This document shows positions 11,807 to 29,816 of a DNA stretch of 43,624 nt, in pieces. A model generated the notes under the pieces. It made no database searches and was not told the DNA's origin. It saw only the letters and a program-made list of their open reading frames with translations. How positions within the stretch are numbered: the stretch's first letter is position 1; each line of letters begins with the position of its first letter. Origin of the DNA: Planctomycetaceae bacterium (GTDB lineage: Bacteria; Planctomycetota; SZUA-567); assembly GCA_021201355.1 (NCBI GenBank), contig JAJQFC010000213.1:1-43624 (forward strand), read 5' to 3'. Both the position numbers and the translations under genes were made by a program.

Positions 11807-11827
11807 TGTTCTAGGCTCGGCGCCAGT

Positions 11828-11874
11828 TTTACAAATATTTTGGCCCTATCGGTATAATAACTTTGACCGACAGG
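11828..11874 (+). promoter_or_regulatory. Candidate promoter with an overlapping dyad
   Basis: TTTACA (11828-11833) and a consensus TATAAT (11853-11858) are separated by 19 bases, slightly long for sigma70. The -10 lies between the arms of a dyad: CCTATCGGT (11845-11853) and ACCGACAGG (11866-11874), matching at eight of nine positions. Such an arrangement fits a repressor site over a promoter. It could drive the 12.2-29.6 kb island about 370 bases downstream, or it may be only a fold at the end of the ald operon; there is no T-run. Confidence 0.35.
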
Positions 11875-12183
11875 CATACTTCTCCCACCAAAATTCGCGT
11901 GGCGAGCGTCCTCTAACCATCAATGAATAATGCGGTTGAACTTTCGGGGCTATATCGGATTACTATCCCATATGAGATATATGGAAGAGTTACCTGGTAC
12001 AGCCCAAAACTTATCTCTACATTTGGTAACAAGCCCGGTACTATACAACTTCCAATCATCATACTTGTAGTAATACCCTCGCAATTACTACAATATTCAC
12101 TTCCGACTAACCCACCAACGAATCTCCGGTTAAAGAAGGCGGAACCGTCGAATGTAAACATCGGCTCTTCACATATTGACTGT
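11875..12183. other. AT-richer gene-free stretch upstream of the island
   Basis: This stretch is visibly richer in A and T than its surroundings. Open frames of about 100 codons exist on both strands, but they cover each other, have no ribosome-binding site and show no recognisable domain. I see no terminator, tRNA or attachment-site repeat. The composition shift marks the boundary between the ald operon and the island. Confidence 0.4.
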
Positions 12184-12222
12184 AAATGGAAACGTATTAC
12201 CATATGGTGTACAATTCCATTT
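12184..12222 (+). promoter_or_regulatory. Nested dyad immediately upstream of the island (candidate operator)
   Basis: Two nearly concentric inverted repeats lie 20-60 bases before the first start codon of the island. The outer arms are AAATGGAA (12184-12191) and TTCCATTT (12215-12222). The inner one is the perfect palindrome ACCATATGGT (12199-12208), extended by GTA on one side and TAC on the other. The centres differ by half a base. This is typical of an operator bound by a dimeric regulator, although no regulator gene is adjacent. Confidence 0.45.
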
Positions 12223-12242
12223 CCATACATGTGAGGGCTCTC

Positions 12243-13706
12243 ATGAACAACAACATCAATGAACCCGAATTAACCGGAGAAATATCCATCAGGGTCAAAA
12301 AACAGTCCATACGTGACGCATGGGCGGGCGCGCAGGTTGAAAACCGGATCAATATCCTCCATGGAGTATTCAGGAAGTACGACGCGGAAACTCAATACCC
12401 GTCGGCAGTGCATAATCTCCTCAAGGCGGCAAAAAGCAAGAAAACTTCCGGCCGCACAAATCTCATCCATAATGAGCTAACACCCTCACATTTTCGAAAA
12501 CGGGAATGGGTTGAAAAATGGCACGACGTTTTCGGAAGCGTCATGCAGAGGGACGAAAAGGTGGGCGGGGAAGTTTTGTATTTTTATTTCGGCATCGTTG
12601 CTCCGCAAGCTCTCGGCGCTTTTAAGCAACGTGTCACAGAAATGATTCAAAACAAGGGCGGAAACATTCAAGCTTTTAAGGGCCTGTCCGCCGGCCTCAA
12701 GTCAGTTCGCGAAATCGTCTCGCCCGATATTTACTCACTCTTTGCGGCCACCCTCTTCTTTAAAAACAATCAATGGCTATCCAAAATTAAACTAAGCAAG
12801 GTTTTCGGCACCGTTTTAAATGATTGGGAAAATTATATAGCTTTTGACAAGAAACAGGCTTCGCCAACCGTAGATGACGGGGTCGAGGGCGAGGAGGAAC
12901 AAGTCGACATTTCCAAGGGCGAATCAAGCGTCCAGGAAGATCTTGCGACAAACGAGGAAATCTCGGCCTGTTTTGACCGCCTCAGTGCCGCTCTCGCCGA
13001 TTCCGTAAACAAGCTATTACAAAACGGAGATGCAGAGGGTTCCGGCGCCAAGAAAATTGAACAAATCACCACCGACTTATGCCGTGAGGCCGAACGGCTG
13101 AACCGGGAGCTCACGGCTCTGGCGAAAAAATCAGGGCTGAAAAATTTGTCATGGTCCGGGTTAGATGCGTACAAAGAAGCCTGGTTACGGGCTCAGACCG
13201 CCGTCAGTGAGAAGTCCGGGCGGGCGCGGGAGGCGCGGGAAAAACTTATCAATGCTCTTGCCGAATGGCTTCCGAGGCAAAACCCTCAAACGGGTGTACA
13301 CGGGCGCATGCTTGAACAGCAACGCGAATTAATAAGCCGGGCGGCCGATACCCTGAAACGCGCAGCCACCCGCGATATCGACGCGGAGTTCCCCGGACAA
13401 CATAACGACTCCCCCGAAGAGTGGTGGCGGTGGCAATTGGCCGCGGATGGGGAACAGTTCGACCACATCATATTCGCTTTGCGCCAGCCGTGGGATCTGG
13501 ATGAGTTCAGTCAGGTAGTTGAAGGCAATCTTATTGCCTTTGACGACCGCACCGACGCGAAAACAGCGGATCTTCCCATACAGGCTCCTCAACCCCTCAC
13601 AGAAAAAATTTTAACTGAATCATCTTCTCCTGACGTAACGGATTCTGGTTCTGTCAATGATAAGGCAGACACCGTCACGATCGTGGAGAGTGAGGAATCA
13701 GGCTAG
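12243..13706 (+). CDS. Island protein A, N-terminal segment (ends at an in-frame TAG)
   Basis: First gene of the 17-kb island. The ATG at 12243 has GAGGG five bases upstream; in-frame codons further upstream lie inside the dyad. The 487 residues match no family I can name. Residues 1-200 look mixed helical and globular (for example EWVEKWHDVFGSVM and KVGGEVLYFYFGIVAPQAL), followed by an acidic linker, a long helical stretch rich in E, R and A, and a second acidic S/E/D/P-rich linker. The frame is interrupted in that last linker by TAG (13704-13706) but stays open in the same frame through another acidic stretch into the large ATPase ending at 18470. The downstream part has no ribosome-binding site, so both segments most likely are one protein of about 2075 residues. 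Confidence 0.7.
   Translation: MNNNINEPELTGEISIRVKKQSIRDAWAGAQVENRINILHGVFRKYDAETQYPSAVHNLLKAAKSKKTSGRTNLIHNELTPSHFRKREWVEKWHDVFGSVMQRDEKVGGEVLYFYFGIVAPQALGAFKQRVTEMIQNKGGNIQAFKGLSAGLKSVREIVSPDIYSLFAATLFFKNNQWLSKIKLSKVFGTVLNDWENYIAFDKKQASPTVDDGVEGEEEQVDISKGESSVQEDLATNEEISACFDRLSAALADSVNKLLQNGDAEGSGAKKIEQITTDLCREAERLNRELTALAKKSGLKNLSWSGLDAYKEAWLRAQTAVSEKSGRAREAREKLINALAEWLPRQNPQTGVHGRMLEQQRELISRAADTLKRAATRDIDAEFPGQHNDSPEEWWRWQLAADGEQFDHIIFALRQPWDLDEFSQVVEGNLIAFDDRTDAKTADLPIQAPQPLTEKILTESSSPDVTDSGSVNDKADTVTIVESEESG
13704..13706 (+). other. In-frame amber codon inside island protein A
   Basis: Codons before the TAG spell an acidic linker (IVESEESG) and codons after it spell more of the same (DVEDSPSSEVNADITSESV), with 60 sense codons up to the ATG at 13887. 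No frameshift is present. The TAG sits in low-complexity sequence where any inserted residue would be tolerated. Confidence 0.75.
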
Positions 13707-13886: not shown

Positions 13887-16800
13887 ATGGATACACCCAC
13901 CGGGTCAGTTTCGGAAGGAATGATATCGGGCGAGGATGAAGCGACGTCTATCGACGGTCCCGCCGATGCGGAAGAAGCGTTACCCGAAAACGCCTCCGAC
14001 AATGAAGCTTCCGGTGCCGGTGATTTTGTCTGGAGAATGATGAAGAAGGATCGCCTGGATCTGGCGTATTACTGGGCCAAATTGGCTGAAGATTCAGGTG
14101 AACCGGCGGTATTCCCCTCGTCTTCCGCCATTCGCGCCATCGCGCTGGCCAACTATCTGGAGGAAAACGACGAAGAACTTCACAAGGAGTACGAGAAACA
14201 CCTTTCCCGTTCGCTCTCTGACTTCGACGTTACCAGTGGAGAAGGCGGTTTGGGCGAGGCGCGTCGCTTGATGGCGCTCGCCGCCAGTCTTATTCCCCTC
14301 ATCACCCGGAACAGCACCAATGCGGAAGCACTGGTGGCTTCTTCATTAAATATTTCCGGTTCTCCGGAGGTGAAACGCCTTATAAGGATAGTAAAGGAAT
14401 TCTCCGAATGTCGCTTCAGCATCGATCTTCTCCGCCGCGGCGCCAGCAACCAGGCCGAAAAGGATAGAATCGAGAACGAGTTCCACAACCAGGCGGTATC
14501 CTGGCTGAAGGAGGCGCGCAGCAAAAAGATTATCTTCGATGCGGGTAAAAAGGTCTGGCTCGTCTGGCTGAAATCGACCGGGGATATCGGCAGGCTCGTA
14601 GAAGGCATAATAGATAATCGTCGGTCCGAAATCGATGAATTACGCCAAATCGCTCAAAAGTGGTCGCAGGACAAGTATATTGACAAGCAAATTCAGGATA
14701 CCGATGCGCTCCTTCGTAAAACCGGTGCGAAACGGCGCGCCATCACGGCGCGGAGCCGAGTATCCTTGAAAAAACATGTCAAGGAAGCGCTTAAGCTTTT
14801 CTTCAAATGGGAACTCCTGTCCAATTTCAAAGTAAGAGAAAAGGATTTTATTAAAATTCCGGAGTACCATGTCGACCTGAAAAAGACACTTCCTCTGGCG
14901 AAAGAATGGCTGGCGGGCAAGTGCGAAGAAAGCATACAAAACCTGGCCCTGGAAGTCGGGTATCGTCTCTTGCGGCGTACTGTAGACCAGTTGGATACGA
15001 TAATCTTTCATCACGAGAATCGCGCCGGTTTTTCCTCGCTGCCAGCCGGTATCGACGCCAATCTTTTACGCATTCCATATATTCGACTCAAGAATGACGC
15101 CGGCTGCCGTCCGTGGCTGGCGGTTCAGCCCGAAAATTTCCGTGAGGCGCTCATAGCCGCCGGGAATGACGAAGACGACTGGCTGACAATCGCTAAAATG
15201 CATATGAGCTCGGGTAACTTCGGAAACGCAGGCCTCGCCCTGGAACTCGCCGAAAATGAGAATTTAGAGGAATACGACACGATACGGGCGAGTTTTAAGG
15301 AAAAGACGGTCGCTGCACGCAACAACCTCTACATCCGGATTAAAGCAGCCAGACTCAAGCTCAACCGCGCCTATTGCGAAGGCCTGCTCAAAGAAGAGGA
15401 GAGGGAACAGTTCGATTGGCCGGTGAAGCTCGCCGAGGTAAAGGACTTTCACCCAATTAACAAAAGTATCGCGGAGATGGAAAACCTCGTCGCCGAAAAA
15501 GAGCGCGAGTTTACGAACCAAATTCGCGAAAAGATCAATGCGATGCCGGACCTGTCCGATGATCGCCGTAATCGAATTCTCCAGTTTCTCGAAAAAGGCA
15601 GATATCTTGCAGCCGAAGGGATAGTGTCTGGCGAACGCTATATCGAGGCGTCGTATTCGACGGAAGAGTATGATTTCTACCCGGACTTCATCGATAGGAT
15701 AAATAGCTTTACCCCAACCTCAAAACCGCCTTTTGACAGTAAAACATTTAGAAAGGCGGCAAAACAGGGAAAGCTCGGCTGGCAGCTTCCGCCCGAAAAC
15801 ATTGAAGCAGCGCTCTATAATCTCGACCAGTTCGAGAATCTTTACCGCTCCGGCGCTAAATACAAAGAAAAGGACGCTTCATTAAAAGATCGGTCGGTAT
15901 ACCTTAAAACTATTCTCACCCGTATCGGATTCAAGAATGTAGACGTGCAACCGTTCGGCAAGGAGACCGACAGAAGGGGCGCCTGGTACACGATGACATG
16001 CGACACCGTAAACAACCGCGACGTTTGTCCGATACCGCATTTCGGTTCCGAAGCGGACGGTAAATACAGTATTTATTGCGTCTGGGATAAACCGTACGGC
16101 CACGAACTGAGAGACCGGGTAAAAAAATCCACCTGTCCGGGAAGAACCATTGTCATTTACCTTAATTGGATGGATAAGGATAAGCGTAACGACCTCGCTT
16201 ACCAAGGCGGTCGCTCGCTGCCGCCTGATAAGGCTTATATCGTACTTGACTGCTACTTGTACCTCTATATCTGTGGTCAACGGAACCCGCTCGCCGCCCT
16301 TTTTAACTGCGCCATCATGTTCAGTCCGGGCCAGCCCTACCAGAGCACCAACAACGCCGGCATTCCGCAAGAAATGTTCTACGGCAGGACGCAGCAACTT
16401 GATAAAATCTGCCACCGCGACGGTCATCTCGTTTACGGTGGGAGGCAATTAGGAAAAACGGCGCTGCTCCATGCCGCCCAACAGCGAATGCACCAGCCCA
16501 AAGAGGAGAGCTACGCTTTTTATCTTGATCTAAAAAATGATTCCCGCACGCACATCGGTACGGCAAACCAACCGTCTTATATTTGGACGGTCATGGGTAA
16601 AATTCTCTTCGAAAATGGCATTATCTCTTCCGGTATCGCCCGGCCCGATACATTCGCCAGATGTGTAATGGAATGGTTGGACAAGAATTCAAAAAGACGC
16701 ATCTTCTTCTTTCTCGACGAAGCGGACAATTTCCTCGAGGCTGATAGGCAAAGCGACTGGATTACGGTGGGCGAATTAAAGAACCTCATGGACAAAACCA

Positions 16801-18470
16801 CCAGCCGATTCAAAATCGTTCTCGCCGGTTTGCATAATGTACAGAGAACGGCAAAGGAAAGTAACACCCCCCTTGCCCATTTCGGCGATCCCATTTGCGT
16901 CGGCGCCTTCACGGACGAAGTTCAGGCGGCCCGGGACATGATTAACCTTCCGCTACGCGCGCTCGGTTTCCGGTTCGAGGATCCCGACCTCTATCTCGAG
17001 ATCCTGGCCCTAACCAATTACTACCCCAGTTTAATCCAGATTTTCTGCAGAAATCTGCTGGACAGTCTGCGCCGCGAACTAAGCCTCAAATCCTCGAACG
17101 TACCACCCTACACCATTACCCATGCCCATATTCAGGATGCCTACAACGAAAGCATCAAGCATATTCGGGAACGATTCTCCTGGTCACTCGACCTCGACCC
17201 CCGGTACAAGTTCCTGGCATACATGATAGCCGAAGAACTCCGTCTCAACCCGAACGGTTCCAACGCACTTACCGTCGGCGAAATTCGCACCGCCGCCCTG
17301 ACCATATGGGACGCCGGTTTCGGAACTCAGACGGGTGAACGGGATTTCAGCGTATTATTGGACGAAATGGAAGGATTGGGAATACTTCGGCGGGTGGACA
17401 ATGAAATGTACACCCTCCGAAACCGGAACGTCATGGCGCTACTGGGCAGCCCGGAAGGGTTCGAGGGCGGAATGCTCGCGGCTATGGACATTGAAGCCGA
17501 CACGCCGTACAGCCCTGACATATTCCGCAAGAAAATCTTGAAATGGAGTCGAAATCCGCTTACCGAGAGCCAGGAACTAAGTCTTCAGGACGTCGTTCAC
17601 GGCGTCATCGTCATCTTTGGTTGCAGTGCCGCCGAAGTCGACAAGATGCCGAAGGCATTGGAAAGCAGTCAATCGTATGAGATGCGAACACTCAACTGGA
17701 AAAACAACGCCACCATTCATCGGTTCCAGGAATGGGTAAAAGACACGACAGCCAGCCAGACTAAATGGACGTACCTCGTGGTGCCGGCCGCCGTCGCCTG
17801 GGACATGAAATGGGTCAAGCATGCCATGAACGAAAACCGAATAGGGCAGAGTTACCGTCAGCGTAAAGTGAAAATTATATTTGTCGGCAATTCGGTTCAG
17901 GCCTGGGACTGGTTTATAAACGGAAATTGCGTACAAGGCCCGAATTTGCGCCTGATGAGCCTCTTGCCGTGGCACGAGCAGACGTTGAAACAGTGGTTTG
18001 AATCCTTGGAGATTCCGTTCGACCGGCCAAAAATCCGTAAAACAATGGGACAGTGCGGCGGATGGGGAGGACTGTGCGACCGCTTTGGCGAGGACGTCAA
18101 CAGAAAGAATGATCGCTGGGACAAACATATGAATAACGACGAGGAATGGACCGGCGCGGATCTATTCAGAGATTATTTCGGACTCAATTTCGGTACGCCC
18201 GAACATGAAATTTTTCACTTGGCGACGGAAGCTTTCGAACTTTTCGACGACGAACTCGATGAACGCGGGTATTACCGCACGCCGGTTTCCTATTCGGAAA
18301 TGAAAGAATGGGTAAGTACCATGAAACCCAATCTCGTCGACTACCTGTCAAAATTATGGGAATGGGCCGCCGCCCTCAGTTACATCAAAAGAATCGACTC
18401 CGAGGAGGATGGCGATCACTGGGCGTTAAACCGTATTCTCACTCGTTTCGCCAAGGCGGGCGCACAATGA
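13887..18470 (+). CDS. Island protein A, main segment: large P-loop (AAA/STAND-like) ATPase
   Basis: A 1527-residue segment whose frame is open from 13707 directly after the TAG; the ATG at 13887 is only the first methionine and lacks a ribosome-binding site. An acidic start is followed by roughly 700 residues of helical repeat-like sequence, a domain of unknown type near 15900-16300, then an ATPase: MFYGRTQQLDKI, Walker A GGRQLGKTALL (lysine codon at 16455) and Walker B RIFFFLDEADNFL (Asp codon at 16716). This type of module occurs in ORC/STAND-like NTPases used as sensors in conflict systems. After it come a winged-helix-like region and a C-terminal module with alternating strands (VIVIFGCSAAEV, VKIIFVGNSVQAW). 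The stop overlaps the next start (ATGA). Confidence 0.8.
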   Translation: MDTPTGSVSEGMISGEDEATSIDGPADAEEALPENASDNEASGAGDFVWRMMKKDRLDLAYYWAKLAEDSGEPAVFPSSSAIRAIALANYLEENDEELHKEYEKHLSRSLSDFDVTSGEGGLGEARRLMALAASLIPLITRNSTNAEALVASSLNISGSPEVKRLIRIVKEFSECRFSIDLLRRGASNQAEKDRIENEFHNQAVSWLKEARSKKIIFDAGKKVWLVWLKSTGDIGRLVEGIIDNRRSEIDELRQIAQKWSQDKYIDKQIQDTDALLRKTGAKRRAITARSRVSLKKHVKEALKLFFKWELLSNFKVREKDFIKIPEYHVDLKKTLPLAKEWLAGKCEESIQNLALEVGYRLLRRTVDQLDTIIFHHENRAGFSSLPAGIDANLLRIPYIRLKNDAGCRPWLAVQPENFREALIAAGNDEDDWLTIAKMHMSSGNFGNAGLALELAENENLEEYDTIRASFKEKTVAARNNLYIRIKAARLKLNRAYCEGLLKEEEREQFDWPVKLAEVKDFHPINKSIAEMENLVAEKEREFTNQIREKINAMPDLSDDRRNRILQFLEKGRYLAAEGIVSGERYIEASYSTEEYDFYPDFIDRINSFTPTSKPPFDSKTFRKAAKQGKLGWQLPPENIEAALYNLDQFENLYRSGAKYKEKDASLKDRSVYLKTILTRIGFKNVDVQPFGKETDRRGAWYTMTCDTVNNRDVCPIPHFGSEADGKYSIYCVWDKPYGHELRDRVKKSTCPGRTIVIYLNWMDKDKRNDLAYQGGRSLPPDKAYIVLDCYLYLYICGQRNPLAALFNCAIMFSPGQPYQSTNNAGIPQEMFYGRTQQLDKICHRDGHLVYGGRQLGKTALLHAAQQRMHQPKEESYAFYLDLKNDSRTHIGTANQPSYIWTVMGKILFENGIISSGIARPDTFARCVMEWLDKNSKRRIFFFLDEADNFLEADRQSDWITVGELKNLMDKTTSRFKIVLAGLHNVQRTAKESNTPLAHFGDPICVGAFTDEVQAARDMINLPLRALGFRFEDPDLYLEILALTNYYPSLIQIFCRNLLDSLRRELSLKSSNVPPYTITHAHIQDAYNESIKHIRERFSWSLDLDPRYKFLAYMIAEELRLNPNGSNALTVGEIRTAALTIWDAGFGTQTGERDFSVLLDEMEGLGILRRVDNEMYTLRNRNVMALLGSPEGFEGGMLAAMDIEADTPYSPDIFRKKILKWSRNPLTESQELSLQDVVHGVIVIFGCSAAEVDKMPKALESSQSYEMRTLNWKNNATIHRFQEWVKDTTASQTKWTYLVVPAAVAWDMKWVKHAMNENRIGQSYRQRKVKIIFVGNSVQAWDWFINGNCVQGPNLRLMSLLPWHEQTLKQWFESLEIPFDRPKIRKTMGQCGGWGGLCDRFGEDVNRKNDRWDKHMNNDEEWTGADLFRDYFGLNFGTPEHEIFHLATEAFELFDDELDERGYYRTPVSYSEMKEWVSTMKPNLVDYLSKLWEWAAALSYIKRIDSEEDGDHWALNRILTRFAKAGAQ

Positions 18471-19591
18471 AGCCGCTCTGGTTCAGACTGCCCGGGCCAT
18501 CGCGGTTTCTCAACAACGTTTTCTCCGAACTCTCCGGGGGCATTAACGTTCTCCTCCTGGCTCCCAAGGAGGCAGCCGGACCGATCTGCGATGCCCTCAA
18601 CGAACTGGTCGTCGATCGCGGACATTTTGCGCCTTCCATTTTTATCGACGCTACAGTGGAACACCACGAAATCGACAAGCTGTTGCTTGACTGTCTCCCG
18701 GAACCATCGGACCAAGACCTCGATGCCCCCGACACGGTGGAACTTCTGTTCCGTCATTTGTCGGATCACCTGTTCTTGATCATGACCAGCGGCGAAGACG
18801 CAAACCGATGGATAGATTTTTTAGGCCAGCACTACCTATTACGGATACGCGGCAGGAAACCCGGTCAAAGCCCGATTTTCTTTATCGTCGCCACCACGAA
18901 CGATTGGCAAAGGACCAGTTCAGGAGGCGTCGCATACATGGGCCAGCCACCGCGGGAAATATCCGGTGACGTCGCCTTCCGCTGCCACACGTGGGATGGC
19001 GTCATCCACCGAAGCGACGTGGAGGCGTACGTCATCAGTCAACTCGTCGACAACACGGAAGAGGACGAGGAATGGTACAAGGAATTACAAGCGGCGATGG
19101 TCTCCTGCATCGCGGGCGATCATATTGAGTTAATAGAATATCTGACGACGCTCCGCTGGAGTCTCCTTGAGTTACCTGAAACGGCGTTGTATTCATCCAA
19201 AATCATGTTGCGGGACGGTTTGATAAATGATTCCGGCGACTATGATGAGGAAGTTTGGCAACGGCGTATATGGCGGGCGCAGGTTCGGGAGGTCTTTCCG
19301 ATTATCGAAGAAATGCGTATCCATATTATTCGAACCGCCATACAAAACGGTTGCCTGGCCGACCAGCTCTTCACCAAGGTCGGCACTCAAAAACAAGCCG
19401 TTGCCGATGCGATGGAGTTAGACTTCGGCGATCTTCCCAAAAACATGATGAAAGAGGCAAATCGCGAATTATTCCATAAGGCCAGCCTCCTCCGGAAAAT
19501 TCGCCACGATATAGCGCATTTAAAACCAGTCCGTATGGATAAGCTCGACCAGGATCTCTTCAGGAAAATGCTTAAGGAAATCAGGTCCTGA
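18467..19591 (+). CDS. Island protein B: degenerate ATPase with HEPN-like C-terminal motif
   Basis: A 374-residue protein translationally coupled to A (ATGA overlap). The N-terminal half follows the rhythm of a P-loop NTPase, but the phosphate loop is lost: INVLLLAPKEAAGPICDAL has no GKS/T. HLFLIMTSGEDANRW and SPIFFIVATTNDWQ sit where Walker B and sensor-1 strands would be. The C-terminus is helical and carries LLRKIRHDIAHLKPV: Arg346-His-x3-His351 fits the R-[N/H/D]-x(3-4)-H signature of HEPN domains, many of which are RNases of defence and toxin systems, though similar motifs also occur in non-catalytic STAND lids. The likely role is as partner of the large ATPase; RNase activity is an inference. 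Confidence 0.7.
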   Translation: MKPLWFRLPGPSRFLNNVFSELSGGINVLLLAPKEAAGPICDALNELVVDRGHFAPSIFIDATVEHHEIDKLLLDCLPEPSDQDLDAPDTVELLFRHLSDHLFLIMTSGEDANRWIDFLGQHYLLRIRGRKPGQSPIFFIVATTNDWQRTSSGGVAYMGQPPREISGDVAFRCHTWDGVIHRSDVEAYVISQLVDNTEEDEEWYKELQAAMVSCIAGDHIELIEYLTTLRWSLLELPETALYSSKIMLRDGLINDSGDYDEEVWQRRIWRAQVREVFPIIEEMRIHIIRTAIQNGCLADQLFTKVGTQKQAVADAMELDFGDLPKNMMKEANRELFHKASLLRKIRHDIAHLKPVRMDKLDQDLFRKMLKEIRS

Positions 19592-19618: not shown

Positions 19619-21058
19619 ATGAAAATCGCTGTTCAGGCAAAAAGCGGGAAGCTTGCATCCGGTGACGACGTTCCCGGCGGCTCTCACCTGAAGGGTATAT
19701 ACCATTGTCCGAAATGCCTCCGGCCCGTCTACCACCGCGCCCGCCATTTCCAGCACTACCATTATAATAAGCATTGCCCGGACAGCATGAAAGGCGGGGA
19801 GGCGCGGCGCGACCCGCGAGGCATGTGGCAATCACTTCCCGTTGAAATAAACGCCTGGCTCCTGGATATAAAGGCGCGCCGGCGCGACGAAGGACTCACT
19901 CTGGAACAAGCGGTGACGGAATATCCGCCGCCCGGAGAATATTGGAGATTACCGTGGGACACGGGACCGTTTACCGAAATAGTTGAATCATTTGGCGAAC
20001 GTGACGACCGTATTCACGACACGACAGCGCTCGCTGTTCTCCACCGGCCGCAAGAAGACGAAACAACGGCGGTTCTCCTGGCAGTGAAAAATGGCGTGAT
20101 TGCGTTTGAACACGAACGTCTCCTCCTTCCGGTCGACCTGACACATCTTCCGGACATGCAGTTCAGCAACCGGGAAATTCAACGAAAGGCGTGGTTTCGC
20201 CGGCTGCTGAGAGAAGACTTCCTCATCGCCGTTCGGGATGACAGTTTCATCGAACCGGTATATGTCTGCTCCGACTTTGCATCGCCGGGCGATGAAATCC
20301 TGTTCCTGGCCAGCGACGAAGTAATGGCTGGAGAAACGGAAAGGCTGCGGATCTACGCCGATGGCGGAGAGGTCCGGATGGTGACTTCCGTCAATGCAGA
20401 ATCGCCGGGGAATCCTTGCATCGCGTCCGACTGGGAAGCGGTGCGATTGACCCTGGCGCATGACGCCCCGGTCATGCCGGCGTGGGTTATCCGTAAAACA
20501 TTGAGCGTGGAAGGCGGCTTAAGAATTGGCCGAGATGTCTACATGTCGGGAACGGATCTTCGCGTCACGCACCTGTCCGGCATGGCGGTCGAATGGTTCG
20601 GTTTTTACGAAAGTGAACGGTTCAGGCCAAAGACCGACGGCGCCAATGCGTGTTCACCCGATAATTTCATCCGGCCGGGGCGATACTATATTTGGGCCGA
20701 CGATGATCGCGGCGGCATCGGTTTTGAAGTACGGAAGCCCGCCGAAACACCGACGTTCTGTGAACGCTCTCCACGCGAATGGTTATGGGGACGCGGATGG
20801 CCACTCCCGGGCGAGGTGGACGATACGATCCCATGCAGCCGCATGTTTGGTGCCTGGTTCTCTTGTCCGGCGGCGGGCGCGATCACGAATATCAATCAGG
20901 CGGCCGGCCGGGAATCTCCGGTTTTTATGGCTCTAAAAGCGTTTACGAACAGCCTGTCAGCCGCTCCGGCCAACCGGTACGCCGGAACGGCGTTGCCCCG
21001 CCATATCGCGGCGGTTTTACTGGAACATGGACAAGGAAAACTGCATGAGAGACGGTGA
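19619..21058 (+). CDS. Island protein C: CoiA-like zinc-finger protein
   Basis: A 479-residue protein. The ATG at 19619 is preceded by GGGAG at five bases; an in-frame GTG at 19607 is possible. Residues 27-53 form a likely zinc site: IYHCPKCLRPVYHRARHFQH with Cys30, Cys33, several His and Cys53. The pattern CPxC...HFxH...C resembles the N-terminal zinc finger of the competence protein CoiA and relatives, where it precedes a nuclease domain. No clear PD-(D/E)xK core is visible here. The rest looks beta-rich with many short strands (for example YYIWADDDRGGIGFEV) and is not recognised. It overlaps the next gene by 14 bases. Confidence 0.7.
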   Translation: MKIAVQAKSGKLASGDDVPGGSHLKGIYHCPKCLRPVYHRARHFQHYHYNKHCPDSMKGGEARRDPRGMWQSLPVEINAWLLDIKARRRDEGLTLEQAVTEYPPPGEYWRLPWDTGPFTEIVESFGERDDRIHDTTALAVLHRPQEDETTAVLLAVKNGVIAFEHERLLLPVDLTHLPDMQFSNREIQRKAWFRRLLREDFLIAVRDDSFIEPVYVCSDFASPGDEILFLASDEVMAGETERLRIYADGGEVRMVTSVNAESPGNPCIASDWEAVRLTLAHDAPVMPAWVIRKTLSVEGGLRIGRDVYMSGTDLRVTHLSGMAVEWFGFYESERFRPKTDGANACSPDNFIRPGRYYIWADDDRGGIGFEVRKPAETPTFCERSPREWLWGRGWPLPGEVDDTIPCSRMFGAWFSCPAAGAITNINQAAGRESPVFMALKAFTNSLSAAPANRYAGTALPRHIAAVLLEHGQGKLHERR

Positions 21059-22997
21059 ATACTTAGGCAGGATAAGCTGGTGCAAACCCGATATGCCATG
21101 GTTGGCCCGGATCGAAGTCTATCAGAACAGGGATATTCCGGAGGAGGATCTCGACTTCCTCGGACCGACGAGACATGTATTCGTGAAGGATCTGCCGAAC
21201 GTTTTACAAAATCAAATCGGTCAGATCGTCTCTTTCCGCATTTTTAAAACGCCCTGGGACGTACCGGACGACAAGGATCCTTTCCATGCGGACGGGCGGA
21301 CTATCAAGGCGGCGGGTTTCTTGCGAGTCGCCGCATGCGAAGAGGACGAATGGAATCAAATTCCTCCCGTTTTTCAGTCCGATAACGTACCTCCGAACAG
21401 CGCGAAGGAACTCATACTCGATACCACATTCGGTCAACGGAAGGGATGGGTCGGGCCATGGAAAGCGGAAAAAGGGAGATGGGTGCCCAAATATGATTTC
21501 AGCCTGTGGTTTTGGGACGCGGAGGATCACGCCCTCACGGCTGAGCCGCTCGGAACGCCGGTGGAATGGTTTGTCCGTCCTCCGAGCACTCACTCAGCGC
21601 AAAAATTGGACGCGAGCGACGGGCCCCGTCTAGCGACGTGGTTCGAAAAACTGATTACAGGCGCCTTCCCCATGATGATGCGGGAATTACAGGAAAAATA
21701 TCCATCATGGCAGGTGGATTTGGCAAACTCCCTGACTGAACGGAATGAATCCGAAGAAGATTTGCAGCGATGGGGCAAGCTCGCCGGCATTTTCAATTCC
21801 CTGAAATTCACCGACAACGAGGTCGATTATCTCCTCTCCCGCCCGGAAGGCGTCGCCGCCCTATTGAAGGCGGTTGAACGGCGGGCGGAATTCGTCGAAG
21901 CGGAAGCGGTACGCATGGCCGAGGAAGAACTGATACGCCTCGAAACAGCCACGAAAAAGAAAGGCGAGGAACTGGCGGATTTGGAGTCCCGTTTCCGGTC
22001 ATTGGATGACGAGTACCAGAATAAGCTCGACCAATTGGCGGTCGTTGAGAACCACTTCCTGGAAAACTGGGATCGTCTCGTCAAGGATGTGGCAGTCATC
22101 GCCAGCGTCTTGCCGGAAGGAAAGCGCGACGAGGACCTTGTTCGACAGCCCGCCGTTTCACCGTTGCCGCCGGTTCGCCTGACGAATGACGCGGAAACGG
22201 ACGATGAGGAAACTTTTATAAACGTTTCCCTGGCCAACACGCTGAAACGTCTCGCCCCCGGTGCGACCACCGACGGCGGACGAAAATTCCATGCCGCGCT
22301 GCTTGCCTGCCGCGGTCTCAGGGTTCCGCATTCAGGCTGGACGCGTGCCTACGGCGAAGCTGTCGGCGCCGCCTCCGTAACCACCATCGTCTCCGCCCGT
22401 CCGGTGTGGGCCTCTTTCGACGACTGCTGGCACGACGGCCTCGACACGTTCTGGCGGCAGGCTTTGACAGATACGGAAAGACTCTATCTCGTCCATCTCC
22501 AAAACGTCGACCTCAGTCTGATCGAGAGTTGGGCCATACCCCTCGTCAATATCCTTCTGGGCCACGCCGCCGTCCTCCCAGTCGACAACTTCCCACCGTG
22601 GCCGGAGAACGTTCGCCTTACCTGGTGCGCCGCTCCCGGCGAGGACCGGTTCCCCCTTCCGGAAAAATTTTCCGCCGCTTTCCCGGCCATTCCTCAACCG
22701 GACGTGGATAGCTGGCTGGCTCCGGACGCATCGATGATCTGCCCAGGTATCAGTTTTGCTTCGTTCGCGGCTTGGGCGCGAATCCGGAATTCCAGTACTG
22801 GTGAACGGGTGGTGCCTGACAGCGCCGTGCGGCGCTGGCCCGATCTCGCCCCAACAATGAACCGGGACATTCTCGCCATCAGGAGCCACCTGCTCCGTCT
22901 GTACGAAGACTACGGACAGGACAATGCCCTGGCGACCGCGATGGACCTTCGCCTCGGACACATGGCTGACGGGAAGGAGCCGACATCACTGTCATGA
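21045..22997 (+). CDS. Island protein D: coiled coil plus apparently inactive McrB-like AAA+ domain
   Basis: A 650-residue protein; the start at 21045 uses AAGGA upstream and overlaps gene C. Residues 1-190 form an unrecognised beta-rich domain. Residues about 275-350 form a coiled coil (EEELIRLETATKKKGEELAD and onward). The C-terminal 250 residues parallel the dynein/McrB type of AAA+ domain: a loop-strand where the P-loop should be (LLACRGLRVPHSGWTRAYGE, no GKS/T), then VSARPVWASFDD like the V-x-P-x-W-x-(S/T)-x-x-D block, then YLVHLQNVDLSLIESW where the DE(M/I)N Walker B should be, and PENVRLTWCAAPGEDRFPLP like the sensor-1 strand and following loop. Catalytic residues are missing, so it may act as a structural or ligand-binding relative. 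This homology is read from pattern only. Confidence 0.65.
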   Translation: MRDGEYLGRISWCKPDMPWLARIEVYQNRDIPEEDLDFLGPTRHVFVKDLPNVLQNQIGQIVSFRIFKTPWDVPDDKDPFHADGRTIKAAGFLRVAACEEDEWNQIPPVFQSDNVPPNSAKELILDTTFGQRKGWVGPWKAEKGRWVPKYDFSLWFWDAEDHALTAEPLGTPVEWFVRPPSTHSAQKLDASDGPRLATWFEKLITGAFPMMMRELQEKYPSWQVDLANSLTERNESEEDLQRWGKLAGIFNSLKFTDNEVDYLLSRPEGVAALLKAVERRAEFVEAEAVRMAEEELIRLETATKKKGEELADLESRFRSLDDEYQNKLDQLAVVENHFLENWDRLVKDVAVIASVLPEGKRDEDLVRQPAVSPLPPVRLTNDAETDDEETFINVSLANTLKRLAPGATTDGGRKFHAALLACRGLRVPHSGWTRAYGEAVGAASVTTIVSARPVWASFDDCWHDGLDTFWRQALTDTERLYLVHLQNVDLSLIESWAIPLVNILLGHAAVLPVDNFPPWPENVRLTWCAAPGEDRFPLPEKFSAAFPAIPQPDVDSWLAPDASMICPGISFASFAAWARIRNSSTGERVVPDSAVRRWPDLAPTMNRDILAIRSHLLRLYEDYGQDNALATAMDLRLGHMADGKEPTSLS

Positions 22998-23923
22998 TTG
23001 ACGGCGATACAATCCTTTATTGGCTCAGTTCCCGAAAGACGGCGACTTTCGGGAAGGCTGTCGTTGATAATTCTCTTTCCGGCCTGACCGTTCATGGCGG
23101 AGGCGGAATTTATACCAGTCTCTGGCCCCTCCTTCTTCAAGGTCATGTTGAAATTACGAAACCGGACTATTTCGCCATGGTCCCGCCCATTCTTCTATGG
23201 CGAAATGAGAAATGCGGCGCAATGCTATGCGGCGCCCGAACTCCCGCACTCGTCGACGCTTTTATTAAAAAGGGCGGCGAACCCCGTTCCGTATCGGACT
23301 CGATGACGAACTTCGCGACACCGCTAGTTCTACGCCGCAGTGGCGGTGAATGCCGGGAAGCGGCGCGCAGCCTCGGCATCGGCTTTACCGACAGCCCATT
23401 GTTACCGCTTTTGGCCGGGCTCCCCGATTTTGGCGAAACTTTGGCGGTCAGTACCACTTCTGCCGAACGCATCCATCCGGATGTTCTTCGGAATTGTCGA
23501 CGCTTCTCCGCGAAAGGCGCAACGCTGCGTTGGTCGATGAGTCCCGATCTGACAGGCAGGCGCGGTCTGTATAGAAGTAATGACGCGTCGTACAAGGGAA
23601 ATACGTATTACGCCATTCTTGATGATTTCGGCCCCGGCCTGGTTTTAGATTATTTTCTGCGGGATATCGCCGTTTGTTATTTCGGGAGTGCGGAGGGCGT
23701 TCCATTGTCCCTTTCGTACGACGGCGATGCCCTGACAATTACCCACCCCTATCACGAAGAAATATATCCACGCCTCCCGCTCCTCCTTGAAAGGATACTT
23801 TTCCTTGCAGCCGCGTCGGTGGAAAAAAACGGTTTGACAACATGTTTTCGCGGTATTCCGCAACCAATTGCCAGCGAGACCGCTCGCATTGTCGGCGTTT
23901 CTTCAGCCGGCCTTTCCCTTTAA
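22994..23923 (+). CDS. Island protein E: unknown
   Basis: A 309-residue protein coupled to D by an ATGA overlap. I do not recognise it. It starts IDGDTILYWLSSRKTATFGK, contains a glycine-rich turn (TVHGGGGIY), several short hydrophobic strands (YFAMVPPILLW, VLDYFLRDIAVCYF) and no membrane helix, nuclease or ATPase motif that I can see. Because it is tightly packed between D and the helicase, it is probably a component of the same machine. Confidence 0.7.
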   Translation: MIDGDTILYWLSSRKTATFGKAVVDNSLSGLTVHGGGGIYTSLWPLLLQGHVEITKPDYFAMVPPILLWRNEKCGAMLCGARTPALVDAFIKKGGEPRSVSDSMTNFATPLVLRRSGGECREAARSLGIGFTDSPLLPLLAGLPDFGETLAVSTTSAERIHPDVLRNCRRFSAKGATLRWSMSPDLTGRRGLYRSNDASYKGNTYYAILDDFGPGLVLDYFLRDIAVCYFGSAEGVPLSLSYDGDALTITHPYHEEIYPRLPLLLERILFLAAASVEKNGLTTCFRGIPQPIASETARIVGVSSAGLSL

Positions 23924-24099: not shown

Positions 24100-27000
24100 A
24101 TGAATCCTGTGGAAAAAACGACATACCTTAAAAAGCTTTATCAGATGTATATGGATTCGGCGATTCCGTTCCGACTCGATTGCCTGACGAGCGAACGTCG
24201 GGACATCTTCGAAGATTCCGGCGCCCTTTGCCAGCCGCCAATGTTCGAACCGCTGACGCGTTATCCCGCCGGACCGACGGTACGGGACATCGCCGTGGAA
24301 CTGGATTTGGCAACGGACTTTCCGGATTTTGTCGAGACGGGTTTTTTCCGGTCCAGTAACGACGAGCCACGCCGGCTGTACGAACACCAGGCCGAAGCCT
24401 TGCGCCAATACCGGGCGGGCAGACACATCGTTATCGCGACGGGTACCGGTTCCGGCAAAACCGAAGCTTTCCTCCTCCCGATACTCAGTACCCTTCTTCG
24501 CGAATCGGCATGCTGGCCGGATACTGGAAAAGAACCGGCGATCCGGGCACTCCTTCTTTATCCTCTCAACGCCCTGGTCGAAGACCAAATGATCCGGTTG
24601 CGCCGGGGCCTGAACGGAGACAGCCTGGGCAAAGACCCAAAGACACCGCGGAGCTGGCTCCGGGATCACCGAGCCGACAAACGAATAACGTTCGGTCGCT
24701 ACACCAGCCAGACTCCCGTTCCCGGCAGTTTTGAAAAGCGTCGGGAGAAATGGAATGAGGCAAGAATTGCGCTGGAGGATCAATGGCGCCGAATTCTTGA
24801 ATCCGCCGCAAAGAACGAACTGAAGGATGAAGACGTACAGTACCATTTTCCTTGTATGGATACCGACTCCGCCGAATGCTGGGATCGTTTCAGCATGCAG
24901 AGGAACGCACCGGATCTTCTTATCACAAACTTTTCCATGTTGAACGTCATGTTAATGCGAAGACGCGAAGACGGGATGTTCGATCAGACCAGGCACTGGC
25001 TGGAAGGAGACCCGTGGCGTTCCGGCAACGATGTTGCACCGACCCGGTATTTCCATCTTGTCGTCGACGAATTGCATTCCTATCGCGGTACTGCCGGCGG
25101 GGAAGTGTCTTTACTCCTCCGGCTTCTCCTTGATCGCCTGGGACTGTCGCCCAATTCGCCGCAACTCAGGTTCCTCGCTTCGAGCGCGTCGCTCACCGAT
25201 GACGCGGCGACAAGAAGCTTCATTACGAGTTTTCTCGGGACCGATTCGTCGGAAAAAGACGACTTTCTCCACCGCTTCTCCCTAATTCAGGACCCGCCCC
25301 GGCAAAAAGGAATCAAGTCTCCCGATCTTCGTGGCAAGATGGAAATGTTTGAAGAAATCGCGGCGACATCGTCCCTGTCGACGGTAAACCGTTCCTCTTC
25401 TTCCAGTGAAGAAGCCGACGGCATGACCGCCCTCAAGGACGAACTCCCTCTCATGCGTGAAATCGCCGAGGATTTTAACAGTCTTTCGGGAGTTTACACC
25501 GTCGCGGATCTTGCCGGCCGCTGGTTTGGCGATTCCGAAAATGCGGCCGCCGCCGCCGGTGTCCTGACCGCTTTAAACTCCTTAAGGGACTCCGGCCGCA
25601 CCGGGGCGCCGATGCGGATGCACGTATTCTTCCGTACCGTGCCAGGCTTATGGGCCTGCTCGAATCCCGATTGCGGAATACTGCCGGAAAACTACCGTCA
25701 CGCCGATCGTCTTTTCGGAAAATTGTACAGGCGCCCAGTCCTGACCTGCGGATGCGGCGCGCGTGTCCTGGACCTCCTGCTCTGCCGTCATTGCGGAGAA
25801 GTGTTTCTTGGAGGAAGCAAATGGCGGGCTGAGGACAACACTCTTTTCCTGACCCATGGACAACCTGATTTGGAGCGAATTCCAGGCAGCGGCTGGCGCC
25901 AAAGGCGCTATGGAGAATACGCGGTCTTTTGGCCCGAAACCGAGAAGCCAAAGCTAATAGAATGGAGACCTGCAAGTGAGGGTTTGCATCACCAGTGGAT
26001 TCGAAGCGCATACAATTGCTTCACCGGTAAAATTGAAAGTCTGGCGAGACAAACGAACTGCTGGCTGTATAAAATAGACCCGCAGGGAGGTGCGGCAGGT
26101 CATCTTGCACCACCGGATTGGGAAATCAGCTATACCGGATTGCCGACGCGCTGCCCCAAATGCGACGCGGACGGACACCGACGGAACAGGGAGCCATTTC
26201 CACCCGTCCAGGAGCATGTCACCACCGTCAACCGGGTGAACCAACTGTTAGCCGACGGCCTTATTCGAAGTACCGAGCCGACCGGCGATGGAGAGACGCT
26301 CCGGAAGCTTGTCATCTTTTCCGACAGCCGGCAGAATGCGGCCAAACTTGCCTCTGGAATCGAACTGGAACATTACCGCGATCTTGTTCGCCAATGTCTT
26401 GTCCAGCATTTCACCGCTGCGACGGACCTGCGCCGGATAATGGTCAAGTATCTCCGTTCAGGCCGGAACGGGCTTTCCGACCGGGAGTTCTCGATGTGGC
26501 GGGACGACCCGGGGATTACGTCCGAATACAAGGACGCAATTAAGACCTGGCGGGATTACCGGGACGAATTGAACGAAAAGCAGCGGCGCATCATCGCATC
26601 ACTGGAAAATGAACACTCTCGCACGGTCTTCAGCGTCACGCAGGCGGCCAACGCGACGCGAAAAAAACTACTCGATCTCGGTGTCAATCCCGCCGGACCG
26701 AGGCCAAGCCTTCAAGGTGACCAGCGTAGCGGGCGCTGGACACGTTTGCTAACTTCCCGGGGTAACGATCTGGAATTTCTTGACGAAGAGTATCTTGAAG
26801 ACAGTCAGCGCTTTCTCTACAAATCCATCAAGGAAATGAGCGAACGTGAATGCATATACACCTTGTTTGCCCACCGAAGAAAGAGCGCCGAAGCCCTTCT
26901 ATTGGGGCGGGTGACCTATAATCCGGATATCGCGGCTCCCGACCTCTCCCGTTATGGCCTGAACGCGGACCAGTCGTCAGCCGCCATCGAAATACTGATT

Positions 27001-28992
27001 CGAATAATGGGTGAATTACGCAGGCTGGAAGGGGAACGGTATTCCAGGTACTACCAGGCACTGCCAACGCCGTTTATGAATTTCGTCGCCGAAGTCACCG
27101 GAATAAACAATAACTTGCAGAAAGCGTTCTCCCTGGAGTTGGTTGAATTTCTCGCGAGACATGGATTGACAACGGCGCCGGAGCGGGTCACGCTGCGGTT
27201 TGGCAACCTCTATTTCATTCCCGCCGAGACCGGCGCACCGTATTGGCAGTGCAATCGGTGCAATACAATTCTTCTTCGTAACGCCTTCCAGCGTTGCTGG
27301 AACTGTCTTGAACCGTTGGACGCCGCCACTCAAAGAATCGTCCGGACGGATAACGCTGAACCGGATTACTATGCCTATCTTTCATCCGACCGGACTGAAA
27401 GTTACCGACTGCATTGCGAAGAGATGACCGGTCAAACCGACTATGGCGAAGCCCGCCGCCGGCAGCGGCTTTTTCAGGACATCACCCTGGCGAAGAATGG
27501 CGAAAATATCCATTTCGACGGCATCGATCTGCTGAGCGTGACGACAACCATGGAGGCCGGCGTCGACATCGGCGGATTGGAATCGGTAATGATGGCCAAC
27601 TTTCCGCCACAGCGGTTCAATTATCAACAACGCGTTGGCCGGGCGGGCCGAAGGAATTCCAGCCTGGCAACGGCGCTCACCGTGTCCCGCGGTTCCAACC
27701 ACGACGAAGCCCACTACACCAACCCGAGACGGATGCTCTCCACCACACCTTCGGCGCCATATATCGATGTCGAGCGCCTGGAAATGCAGAAGCGGTTCCT
27801 CATGAAAGAGGTTTTACGACGGACATTTTGGGAGAGCAAGGTCGGCGGAGAAAATGTCCACGGCTCTTTCGGCACAGTTGGGGATTGGGCAAGCAATGCG
27901 CCGCTCCTCCTCCGCTGGCTGGACAGGAACAAATCGGAACTGTCGGGCATTATCGATACCCTGGTCCGCGGCACGACAGTGGCGTCGCGAAAGCAGGAAT
28001 TAGCAGAATGGGCCGCCGTCGGTATGCCGGAAGCCATCAATATGGCTGTTCGCGATCAACCGGGATTCCCCGGCGCTCCGTTGAGCCAGGCGCTGGCGGA
28101 CTGCGGCCAGTTGCCGATGTTCGGCTTGCCGACCCGCATGCGGCAACTCCACCACCACCGCCCGAACCGTTTGCCTGGAGACGGCATCGCCCGGGATCTG
28201 GACATCGCCATCAGCCAGTTCGCGCCGAAAAGCCAGACCATCAAGGATAAATCCAAGCTCACGGCGGTCGGTGTCGTTACCTTTCAGGAACAGTGGAACA
28301 GGGTCAGGGAGGAGGATGGACGGGGCGTCCCGCACAGATTCTGCCAGTGTCCGGCATGCACCACGTTGTTTCACGAACCGCTCCCGGAAGGTTTTTGTCC
28401 GGTGTGCCAGGCCCCGCTGGACGAAAACGCCGCGTTTACCGCCTGGGAACCGCTCGGATTTACCGTCGAGTATAACTTTGAAACAGGCGAGGGTGAACGA
28501 GAGGACGACGACGGCTATTTCGAGTGGACTCCCCGGTCGACCCCCGCCCGGCTTTGCATGCCGTCCCGGCCCATGCGAAAGGTGTCTGGCCGGAATATCG
28601 CGTCCGCGTCGCTCCCGGGAACGGTGTATTCGGTGAACGATAACGACGGGAAACTTTTTCGCATGGAACAGCTGCGCTCCCACCGGGCGTTATGGGTTCA
28701 TCGCGACGCGTTGAACGACGGCGGCGATCCTTCCCGTCCGCAGAGGGGCTTTTGGCTGAACGATCTGGACGGGAATAGTGCCGTCGACGTGGCACTGTGT
28801 TCAGCCAGAACCACGGACGTCCTTCTTCTTCGCCATTCAGACGTTCCCGCCTTCCTCCATTCCAATCCGGATGCTCCGGCCGGACGGGTCTACTGTAAGG
28901 CCGCCTATTATTCCTGGGGCTACATGGCCCGCCGGGCCGCGGCCAATTACCTCGACGTTTCGGTGGACGAATTGAATATGAACACCACCTAG
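24100..28992 (+). CDS. Island protein F: SF2 helicase with zinc-binding clusters and DUF1998 (ends at in-frame TAG)
   Basis: A very large superfamily-2 helicase (1630 codons to the TAG). GGAG lies seven bases before the ATG. Helicase motifs are complete: I, ATGTGSGKTEAFLLP (Lys120); II, LVVDELHSYRG (Asp323); III-like, FLASSASLTDD; V, TTTMEAGVDIGGLESV; VI, QQRVGRAGRR (about 1176-1185). Cys pairs suggest several zinc sites: ACSNPDCG, CGCGARVLDLLLCRHCGE, CPKCDADG, CNRCNTI with CWNCLE, and CQCPACTT with CPVCQA. The C-terminal DUF1998 domain begins before the TAG and continues after it. This architecture is that of DruE of Druantia and of DrmA/DrmB-like proteins of DISARM. A 176-base gap separates it from gene E. 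It probably moves along or remodels invading DNA. Confidence 0.85.
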   Translation: MNPVEKTTYLKKLYQMYMDSAIPFRLDCLTSERRDIFEDSGALCQPPMFEPLTRYPAGPTVRDIAVELDLATDFPDFVETGFFRSSNDEPRRLYEHQAEALRQYRAGRHIVIATGTGSGKTEAFLLPILSTLLRESACWPDTGKEPAIRALLLYPLNALVEDQMIRLRRGLNGDSLGKDPKTPRSWLRDHRADKRITFGRYTSQTPVPGSFEKRREKWNEARIALEDQWRRILESAAKNELKDEDVQYHFPCMDTDSAECWDRFSMQRNAPDLLITNFSMLNVMLMRRREDGMFDQTRHWLEGDPWRSGNDVAPTRYFHLVVDELHSYRGTAGGEVSLLLRLLLDRLGLSPNSPQLRFLASSASLTDDAATRSFITSFLGTDSSEKDDFLHRFSLIQDPPRQKGIKSPDLRGKMEMFEEIAATSSLSTVNRSSSSSEEADGMTALKDELPLMREIAEDFNSLSGVYTVADLAGRWFGDSENAAAAAGVLTALNSLRDSGRTGAPMRMHVFFRTVPGLWACSNPDCGILPENYRHADRLFGKLYRRPVLTCGCGARVLDLLLCRHCGEVFLGGSKWRAEDNTLFLTHGQPDLERIPGSGWRQRRYGEYAVFWPETEKPKLIEWRPASEGLHHQWIRSAYNCFTGKIESLARQTNCWLYKIDPQGGAAGHLAPPDWEISYTGLPTRCPKCDADGHRRNREPFPPVQEHVTTVNRVNQLLADGLIRSTEPTGDGETLRKLVIFSDSRQNAAKLASGIELEHYRDLVRQCLVQHFTAATDLRRIMVKYLRSGRNGLSDREFSMWRDDPGITSEYKDAIKTWRDYRDELNEKQRRIIASLENEHSRTVFSVTQAANATRKKLLDLGVNPAGPRPSLQGDQRSGRWTRLLTSRGNDLEFLDEEYLEDSQRFLYKSIKEMSERECIYTLFAHRRKSAEALLLGRVTYNPDIAAPDLSRYGLNADQSSAAIEILIRIMGELRRLEGERYSRYYQALPTPFMNFVAEVTGINNNLQKAFSLELVEFLARHGLTTAPERVTLRFGNLYFIPAETGAPYWQCNRCNTILLRNAFQRCWNCLEPLDAATQRIVRTDNAEPDYYAYLSSDRTESYRLHCEEMTGQTDYGEARRRQRLFQDITLAKNGENIHFDGIDLLSVTTTMEAGVDIGGLESVMMANFPPQRFNYQQRVGRAGRRNSSLATALTVSRGSNHDEAHYTNPRRMLSTTPSAPYIDVERLEMQKRFLMKEVLRRTFWESKVGGENVHGSFGTVGDWASNAPLLLRWLDRNKSELSGIIDTLVRGTTVASRKQELAEWAAVGMPEAINMAVRDQPGFPGAPLSQALADCGQLPMFGLPTRMRQLHHHRPNRLPGDGIARDLDIAISQFAPKSQTIKDKSKLTAVGVVTFQEQWNRVREEDGRGVPHRFCQCPACTTLFHEPLPEGFCPVCQAPLDENAAFTAWEPLGFTVEYNFETGEGEREDDDGYFEWTPRSTPARLCMPSRPMRKVSGRNIASASLPGTVYSVNDNDGKLFRMEQLRSHRALWVHRDALNDGGDPSRPQRGFWLNDLDGNSAVDVALCSARTTDVLLLRHSDVPAFLHSNPDAPAGRVYCKAAYYSWGYMARRAAANYLDVSVDELNMNTT
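28990..28992 (+). other. In-frame amber codon inside the DUF1998 domain of the helicase
   Basis: The TAG interrupts DUF1998 between YLDVSVDELNMNTT and FSDGTSTGMEVFLADNLANG. In this family the region before the VFLAD strand is continuous with the GAGYC motif, which here lies beyond the TAG in the same frame, with no indel. Without readthrough the helicase would lose the conserved core of its C-terminal domain. Confidence 0.8.
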
Positions 28993-29577
28993 TTCTCCGA
29001 CGGAACGTCTACGGGGATGGAGGTGTTCCTTGCCGATAATCTCGCCAATGGAGCCGGATATTGCCGGCACCTCGCCGAAAACATCGAGCCGGCAATCCTC
29101 ATGCCGCTCCTGCCCGGCGGTGAGTTTTACAACGCCATGATTTCGCAGTCACATGCTTCCGACTGCAACGGCGTTTGTTACGACTACCTTGCAGACTACA
29201 GCAACTCGGAGTTCCACGGGATACTTGATTGGCGGCTGGCCCTGGACCTGGCGGCCCTGGCGGCGGACGAGCGCCATCCCGTCGATTTGACCGCCGAGTA
29301 TTGGTCCGGTATACCCGAAAAAGCGGCGCGGATTTTTGTAAACGCGGTCGACGGGCTGGAAGCACAGACGATTGATTCGCTAACCTGCTTGTTTCGCGGT
29401 AAAGAATTGTTTTGCGTATTTACTCATCCCCTCTGGAGAACCGATCATCCCAGCCTGATCAACCTCGCGACAACGCTCACTCTCACTTCGGAAGCGTTAG
29501 GATTGCGGCAGTGCAACCTTTTTGACGCCCTTCGCCGGCCGGGATGGTGTTTAACCCGGTTGGATTTTGAGGGATAA
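28993..29577 (+). CDS. Helicase F, C-terminal DUF1998 segment after the TAG
   Basis: The frame continues directly from the helicase and encodes 194 more residues, giving 1825 codons in total. It carries the DUF1998 core: VFLADNLANGAGYCRHL, then SDCNGVCYDYLADYSNSEFH with the paired cysteines and H typical of the domain, then LDWRLALDLAALA. Its first methionine (29017) lies inside the domain and has no ribosome-binding site, so independent translation is unlikely. It is part of protein F if the TAG is read, or an untranslated remnant if it is not. It ends in TAA, 29 bases before a hairpin. Confidence 0.75.
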   Translation, partial: FSDGTSTGMEVFLADNLANGAGYCRHLAENIEPAILMPLLPGGEFYNAMISQSHASDCNGVCYDYLADYSNSEFHGILDWRLALDLAALAADERHPVDLTAEYWSGIPEKAARIFVNAVDGLEAQTIDSLTCLFRGKELFCVFTHPLWRTDHPSLINLATTLTLTSEALGLRQCNLFDALRRPGWCLTRLDFEG

Positions 29578-29606
29578 ACAGATCTTTATACAGCTATAAT
29601 GGAAAT

Positions 29607-29639
29607 GGACCTGCGGCACGGAGAAAATGCCGCAGGTCC
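29607..29639. terminator. Perfect 12-bp hairpin between convergent genes
   Basis: GGACCTGCGGCA (29607-29618) and TGCCGCAGGTCC (29628-29639) form a perfect stem with a nine-base loop. It lies between the end of the island (29577) and the convergent small minus-strand gene, so it can serve both directions. There is no long T-run after it, so efficiency is uncertain. Confidence 0.65.
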
Positions 29640-29696
29640 ATAATTAGGATGGGAATGCTACAATATGCAGCGAGAGGCCTTTTTACTGCCGAACTC

Positions 29697-29816
29697 TTAG
29701 TGCTTCTTTTTCCGGCGCTTCTTTTTGGCCTGGTGGCTTTGGCCCATTCCCTGGACGCCTGATTTGTCGACTTTTTGCGTGGTGGGGTAGGCGTCGGTGG
29801 GCTGGCTGGTGAACTA
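29697..29816 (-). other. In-frame extension after TAG in the small gene
   Basis: After the TAG the same frame reads FTSQPTDAYPTTQKVDKSG and ends in a basic tail, QAKKKRRKKKH, followed by TAA (29697-29699). A lysine-rich tail of this kind looks like a real protein C-terminus rather than chance. The bases around the TAG (CC-TAG-TTC) are the same as at the helicase TAG. Confidence 0.45.

What the first reader, a model, noticed from the sequence alone, without database searches (positions are those of the whole stretch)
28990..28992. In-frame TAG splits the DUF1998 domain of the helicase
The helicase reads without any indel through 1630 codons to a TAG and then on, in the same frame, for 194 codons that carry the conserved GAGYC and cysteine-pair core of DUF1998. 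Independent translation of the tail is unlikely, as it has no ribosome-binding site and starts inside the domain. So either the protein is truncated, or the amber is read.
Basis: partly seen in the sequence, partly recalled or inferred. Interest (0 to 1): 0.7.

Follow-up and report, generated by a model that had tools for sequence, protein, structure and literature searches.

The report
Amber stop truncates a Druantia helicase
A stop codon cuts the last tenth off a large anti-phage helicase (DruE of the Druantia family) inside its zinc-binding domain; the evidence points to an ordinary broken defence gene rather than to a stop codon that is read through.

Summary
The ORF at 24100-28992 ends at TAG 28990-28992, and the same frame stays open for 194 codons to TAA 29575-29577. 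The protein is DruE, the YprA/MrfA-type helicase of Druantia anti-phage systems; both halves match DruE models in register. The stop falls in a predicted beta-strand of the DUF1998/MZB zinc domain and removes all cysteines of its zinc motif plus the C-terminal domain.
Homologues read through the site. The column is variable (P, S, I, V, T...), not a fixed Q or W.
Amber decoding is not supported: release factor 1 is present, no PylS was found, none of 36 resolved tRNAs reads UAG, and other genes in the window end in TAG. Re-initiation lacks a ribosome-binding site.
The tail also carries C1696Y, a cysteine kept in 88 of 88 homologues, so even a read-through product would probably have a damaged zinc site. 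Published work shows that one DUF1998 cysteine mutation abolishes defence in a type III DruE.
Broken druE genes are not rare: about five others turned up here, one with a stop at the adjacent codon, which I treat as coincidence.
Best explanation: a fairly recent nonsense mutation that inactivated a horizontally acquired Druantia-like system. Low interest.

The parts
24100..28992 (+). druE open reading frame up to the amber stop (1630 codons): DEAD/DEAH helicase core and the start of the MZB domain
   Evidence: PADLOC DruE4/DruE2, best E = 0; motifs GTGSGKTE, DELH, QRVGRAGR intact
28990..28992 (+). in-frame TAG, residue 1631 of the read-through protein, inside a predicted beta-strand (model residues 246-254; stop = 252) of the MZB/DUF1998 domain
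   Evidence: homologue column variable
28993..29577 (+). former C-terminal part of druE: 194 codons and TAA; rest of the MZB domain (GAGYC, H1685, C1689, C1693, Y1696 in place of C) and the C-terminal domain
29185..29187 (+). codon for Y1696, where 88 of 88 homologues have the third MZB cysteine
22994..23923 (+). partner gene in the DruL/DruG position (309 aa), overlapping the gene before it by 4 bases
   Evidence: E = 1e-6 to the gene before druE in Nostoc sp. C052, which matches PADLOC DruL4; also matches L021, L036 and L080
21027..22997 (+). partner gene in the DruF position (656 aa), not recognised by DruF models
   Evidence: homologues upstream of druE in L020 and L021 (tblastn 1e-33, 5e-25); no DruF match
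13887..19591 (+). large P-loop ATPase gene (1527 aa) and the following gene, same strand, in the same island; link to Druantia unproven
29607..29642 (+). hairpin (GGACCTGCGGCA...TGCCGCAGGTCC) shortly after the TAA, near the original gene end; terminator-like by eye only, not called by the scan
   Evidence: sequence; one search did not list it

Best explanation
The TAG is a nonsense mutation in a horizontally acquired druE gene. Translation stops within the DUF1998/MZB domain, so the zinc site and the C-terminal domain are never made, and the Druantia-like system is predicted to be inactive. The downstream 194 codons are a fairly young relic: still open and coding-like, but already without an invariant cysteine. 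Shown here: the stop, the identity, the domain position, the uninterrupted homologues, the lack of amber-decoding machinery in the assembly. Inferred: loss of function, and the recent date.
For: Both halves match DruE in register. Homologues continue through the site. The stop is in a confident beta-strand of the MZB fold (mean pLDDT 88; best PDB match MrfA 6znp). RF1 present, no PylS, no CUA-anticodon tRNA among 36 resolved tRNAs, TAG ends other genes of the window. C1696 is Cys in 88/88 homologues and Tyr here; S1692V and R1698A lie next to it. Mutating DruE C1516 (DUF1998) of M. smegmatis type III Druantia abolished defence (PMC13316683). In-frame stops also occur in other druE genes at residues 720, 970, 1124 and 1630.
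Against: The tail does not evolve faster than the body: lineage-specific changes against L020, with outgroup L021, are 22:12 in the tail and 237:116 in the body, so decay is not visible beyond the cysteine motif. Departures at conserved columns are 3/20 in the tail against 11/224 in the body, suggestive only. The rest of the operon is open. Loss of function was not measured.
Confidence: 0.78

Rival explanations
1. The stop is an assembly or sequencing error, or a minority allele in the sampled population; the real gene is intact.
For: The genome is a draft of 372 contigs, 83% complete, probably assembled from a metagenome; reads could not be seen.
Against: The same tail also carries C1696Y at a column invariant in 88 homologues. 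Nonsense alleles of druE occur in other genomes.
Confidence: 0.12
2. The amber is read through (near-cognate or suppressor tRNA) at some level, giving a little full-length DruE.
For: The tail is open, coding-like and no faster-evolving than the body. The stop column tolerates many residues.
Against: RF1 present, no PylS, no UAG-reading tRNA found; the genome is incomplete, so absence is not proof. RNA folding around the stop is unremarkable (z = -1.7). The full-length product would lack a conserved zinc ligand.
Confidence: 0.05
3. The gene has been split: the tail is made by re-initiation at ATG 29017 and works in trans, as DrmA and DrmB do in DISARM.
For: ATG 29017 lies 24 bases after the TAG. 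In DISARM the DUF1998 module is a separate gene (PMC12458937).
Against: No ribosome-binding site. The cut is inside one beta-strand of the MZB domain, whereas DISARM separates the whole OB-CON-DUF1998 module. No homologue examined is split here, and C1696Y argues against a working tail.
Confidence: 0.03
4. The truncated 1630-residue protein is itself functional in defence.
For: Helicase motifs are intact.
Against: All 88 homologues that cover the region keep the three MZB cysteines; a DUF1998 cysteine mutant of a type III DruE is dead in phage assays (PMC13316683).
Confidence: 0.02

Closest known systems
DruE of Druantia types II/IV (PADLOC DruE2 and DruE4)
   Same: Best model matches over nearly the full length; helicase followed by MZB and a C-terminal domain; a DruL-like gene and a gene in the DruF position precede it.
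   Different: In-frame amber at residue 1631 and C1696Y; the gene in the DruF position is not recognised by DruF models; no cytosine methyltransferase was recognised among the operon genes scanned.
MrfA/YprA helicases (PDB 6znp) and DISARM DrmAB (7s9v)
   Same: The MZB/DUF1998 fold of the read-through C-terminus matches them.
   Different: DruE is far larger, with inserted domains; in DISARM the DUF1998 module is a separate gene (PMC12458937).
druE of an uncultured proteobacterium (L020, CAIMUS010000035.1)
   Same: Closest homologue, 42% identity over the whole length, same order of partner genes.
   Different: Uninterrupted; Leu (CTC) at the stop position; full cysteine motif CDSSCYDCLRDY.
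druE of Nostoc mirabile CHAB5784 (L081)
   Same: Also broken by an in-frame stop, TGA, at the adjacent codon.
   Different: Distant (32% identity), a different stop codon, cysteine motif intact; a close relative (L043) is uninterrupted.

Membership tests
Druantia DruE helicase | Full-length match to DruE models | tested here: met
   Body and tail both match DruE2/DruE4 in register; 161 plasmid records and 80 genome loci hold relatives.
Druantia DruE helicase | SF2 motifs I, II and VI | tested here: met
   GTGSGKTE, DELH, QRVGRAGR present; largely invariant in alignment A1.
Druantia DruE helicase | Complete MZB/DUF1998 zinc domain in the translated product | tested here: not met
   Stop at 1631 inside the domain; third cysteine is Tyr in the tail. 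It belongs to the family by descent, not as a complete protein.
Druantia type II/IV system | DruF, DruG/DruL (and DruM in type II) beside DruE | tested here: inconclusive
   309-aa gene is DruL-like by pairwise match only; 656-aa gene sits in the DruF place without a DruF match; no methyltransferase recognised among the operon genes scanned.
Amber decoding (pyrrolysine or suppressor tRNA) | PylS or a tRNA with CUA anticodon | tested here: not met
   No PylS; 36 tRNAs resolved, none with CUA; genome 83% complete, so absence is not absolute.
TAG reassignment in the whole genome | RF1 absent, TAG not used as a stop | tested here: not met
   RF1 above cut-off; alanine dehydrogenase and other window genes end in TAG.

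The most novel reading that the evidence does not exclude
Nonsense mutations at this spot of the MZB hairpin recur (amber here, opal at the adjacent codon in Nostoc L081) because truncation there is a favoured, perhaps reversible way to switch DruE off, or leaves a partly working helicase.
Probability: 0.04. Interest if true: 0.55.

Novelty: new member of a known kind. Interest (0 to 1): 0.17.

Why it matters
It is an example of how costly anti-phage systems are gained and lost. A gene caller would report an apparently normal 1630-residue helicase and defence-finding tools would score the locus, although the system is predicted to be dead. Checking the MZB cysteines and the 3' end would flag such false positives.

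Tried and rejected
Amber reassignment and pyrrolysine: rejected. Stop position as a conserved special residue (Q, W or Pyl): rejected, the column is variable. Faster evolution of the tail as a sign of long decay: tested, not seen. RNA structure for read-through: weak. A same-genus intact copy: not found, the six other genomes of the genus lack druE. Adjacent-codon stop in L081: with about five other broken druE genes and roughly 1800 codons, one falling within a codon of this stop has a chance of about 1%, and it was noticed after the fact; treated as coincidence. The apparent stop in L044 is only its own gene end. First genome-contig scan with the single protein found nothing.

Full report
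Observation. The ORF 24100-28992 (+) has 1630 codons and ends at TAG 28990-28992. The same frame runs on for 194 sense codons to TAA 29575-29577. Base-shuffled tails stay open in 0.08% of cases, and the tail keeps the codon usage of the body in this frame only. The tail alone matches DruE models at about 1e-31 to 2e-33, continuing from where the body match ends.

Identity. The protein is DruE, the YprA/MrfA-type helicase of Druantia (PADLOC DruE4 and DruE2, E = 0). Pfam finds DEAD and Helicase_C, and MZB (formerly DUF1998) weakly across the stop; the closest homologue passes the MZB cut-off at the same place. An AlphaFold model of residues 1380-1825, read through with Q at the stop, is confident (mean pLDDT 88, pTM 0.87) and puts the stop (model residue 252) in the strand 246-254. 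Its best PDB match is MrfA 6znp, then DrmAB 7s9v. A full-length relative is already solved (9wae, 'Helicase').

Homologues. Relatives came from 80 genome loci, plasmid records and searches of the window's phylum and of Cyanobacteria. In the alignment of 88 usable sequences, all but L081 (discussed below) are uninterrupted around the stop position. The residue at the stop column is P 24, S 16, I 15, V 10, T 10, A 5, Q 3 and others, so the site is a variable strand position and no single ancestral codon can be named. The nearest homologue, L020 (42% identity), has Leu CTC.

A second lesion. Histidine H1685 and cysteines C1689, C1693 and C1696 form the conserved motif H-x3-C-x3-C-x2-C. C1696 is Cys in 88 of 88 homologues and Tyr in the window. 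S1692V and R1698A lie beside it. So even a full-length product would probably have a damaged zinc site. In M. smegmatis type III DruE, C1516A abolishes defence, and the authors assign this to DUF1998 (PMC13316683). The cryo-EM study of E. coli type III DruE describes zinc clusters in the MrfA-like module beside the DNA channel (PMC13192584). That C1516 is the counterpart of one of these cysteines is my inference.

Is the tail under relaxed selection? Overall no: the window sequence has changed faster than L020 along the whole protein (237:116 in the body, 22:12 in the tail, outgroup L021). At columns at least 90% conserved, departures are 3/20 in the tail and 11/224 in the body, which is suggestive but weak. 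This fits a recent stop.

Is the amber read? RF1 is present above its cut-off. PylS was not found. Of 37 tRNA matches, ARAGORN resolved 36, none with a CUA anticodon. Alanine dehydrogenase, a transporter permease gene and others in the window end in TAG. RNA structure near the stop is not unusual. No start codon in the tail has a usable ribosome-binding site. The assembly is 83% complete, so a missing tRNA cannot be excluded.

Base rate. Other druE genes with in-frame stops: L078 (residue 970, TGA), L081 (1630, TGA), L089 (1124, TGA), L175 (720, TAA) and a fragmented copy in G514. Broken copies are thus a few per cent of those seen. The L081 stop lies at the codon next to this one, in a gene only 32% identical. 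I treat this as coincidence (about 1%, noticed after the fact) and list it as the most novel reading.

Surroundings. The druE gene lies at the right end of an island. From 29704 onward the DNA is about 84-92% identical to same-genus genome G001. Parts of the left side (roughly 1.5-8.2 kb) also have relatives in the genus, whereas 10556-12200 and druE do not. GC is 46-54% between about 12 and 20 kb and rises above 60% after 30 kb. Upstream genes on the same strand are a 506-aa protein, a 1527-aa ATPase, two proteins of unknown family, a 656-aa gene in the DruF position and a 309-aa DruL-like gene. L020 and L021 keep the 656-aa homologue, then a smaller gene, then druE. This makes the locus a Druantia II/IV-like variant with divergent partners.

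Conclusion. The most likely reading (0.78) is a nonsense mutation that inactivates a horizontally acquired Druantia-like system, with the tail as a young relic. The main alternative is an assembly error or a minority allele (0.12).

Noticed in passing
window 13887-19591: A 1527-aa P-loop ATPase followed by a roughly 370-aa protein; homologues of the ATPase, with a gene of similar size after it, occur on plasmids of Candidatus Thiodictyon (L196) and Salinibacter (L197), and one lies near a DruE-like helicase in Methylocystis parvus (L194). Possibly a defence pair of its own.
   Followed up: partly
window 21027-22997: 656-aa gene in the DruF position, with homologues upstream of druE in L020, L021 and Bacteroidota loci, is not recognised by any DruF model; perhaps an undescribed DruF-like family.
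   Followed up: partly
L081, druE: Nostoc mirabile druE has an in-frame TGA at the codon adjacent to the window's TAG position; its close relative L043 is uninterrupted.
   Followed up: partly
window 29577-29704: Sharp right-hand boundary of the island about 125 bases after the druE TAA; synteny with same-genus genomes starts at 29704 and GC rises from about 56% to above 62%.
   Followed up: partly
window 12001-13000: Lowest GC of the window (46%), at the first gene of the island (506-aa protein with no family match).
   Followed up: no
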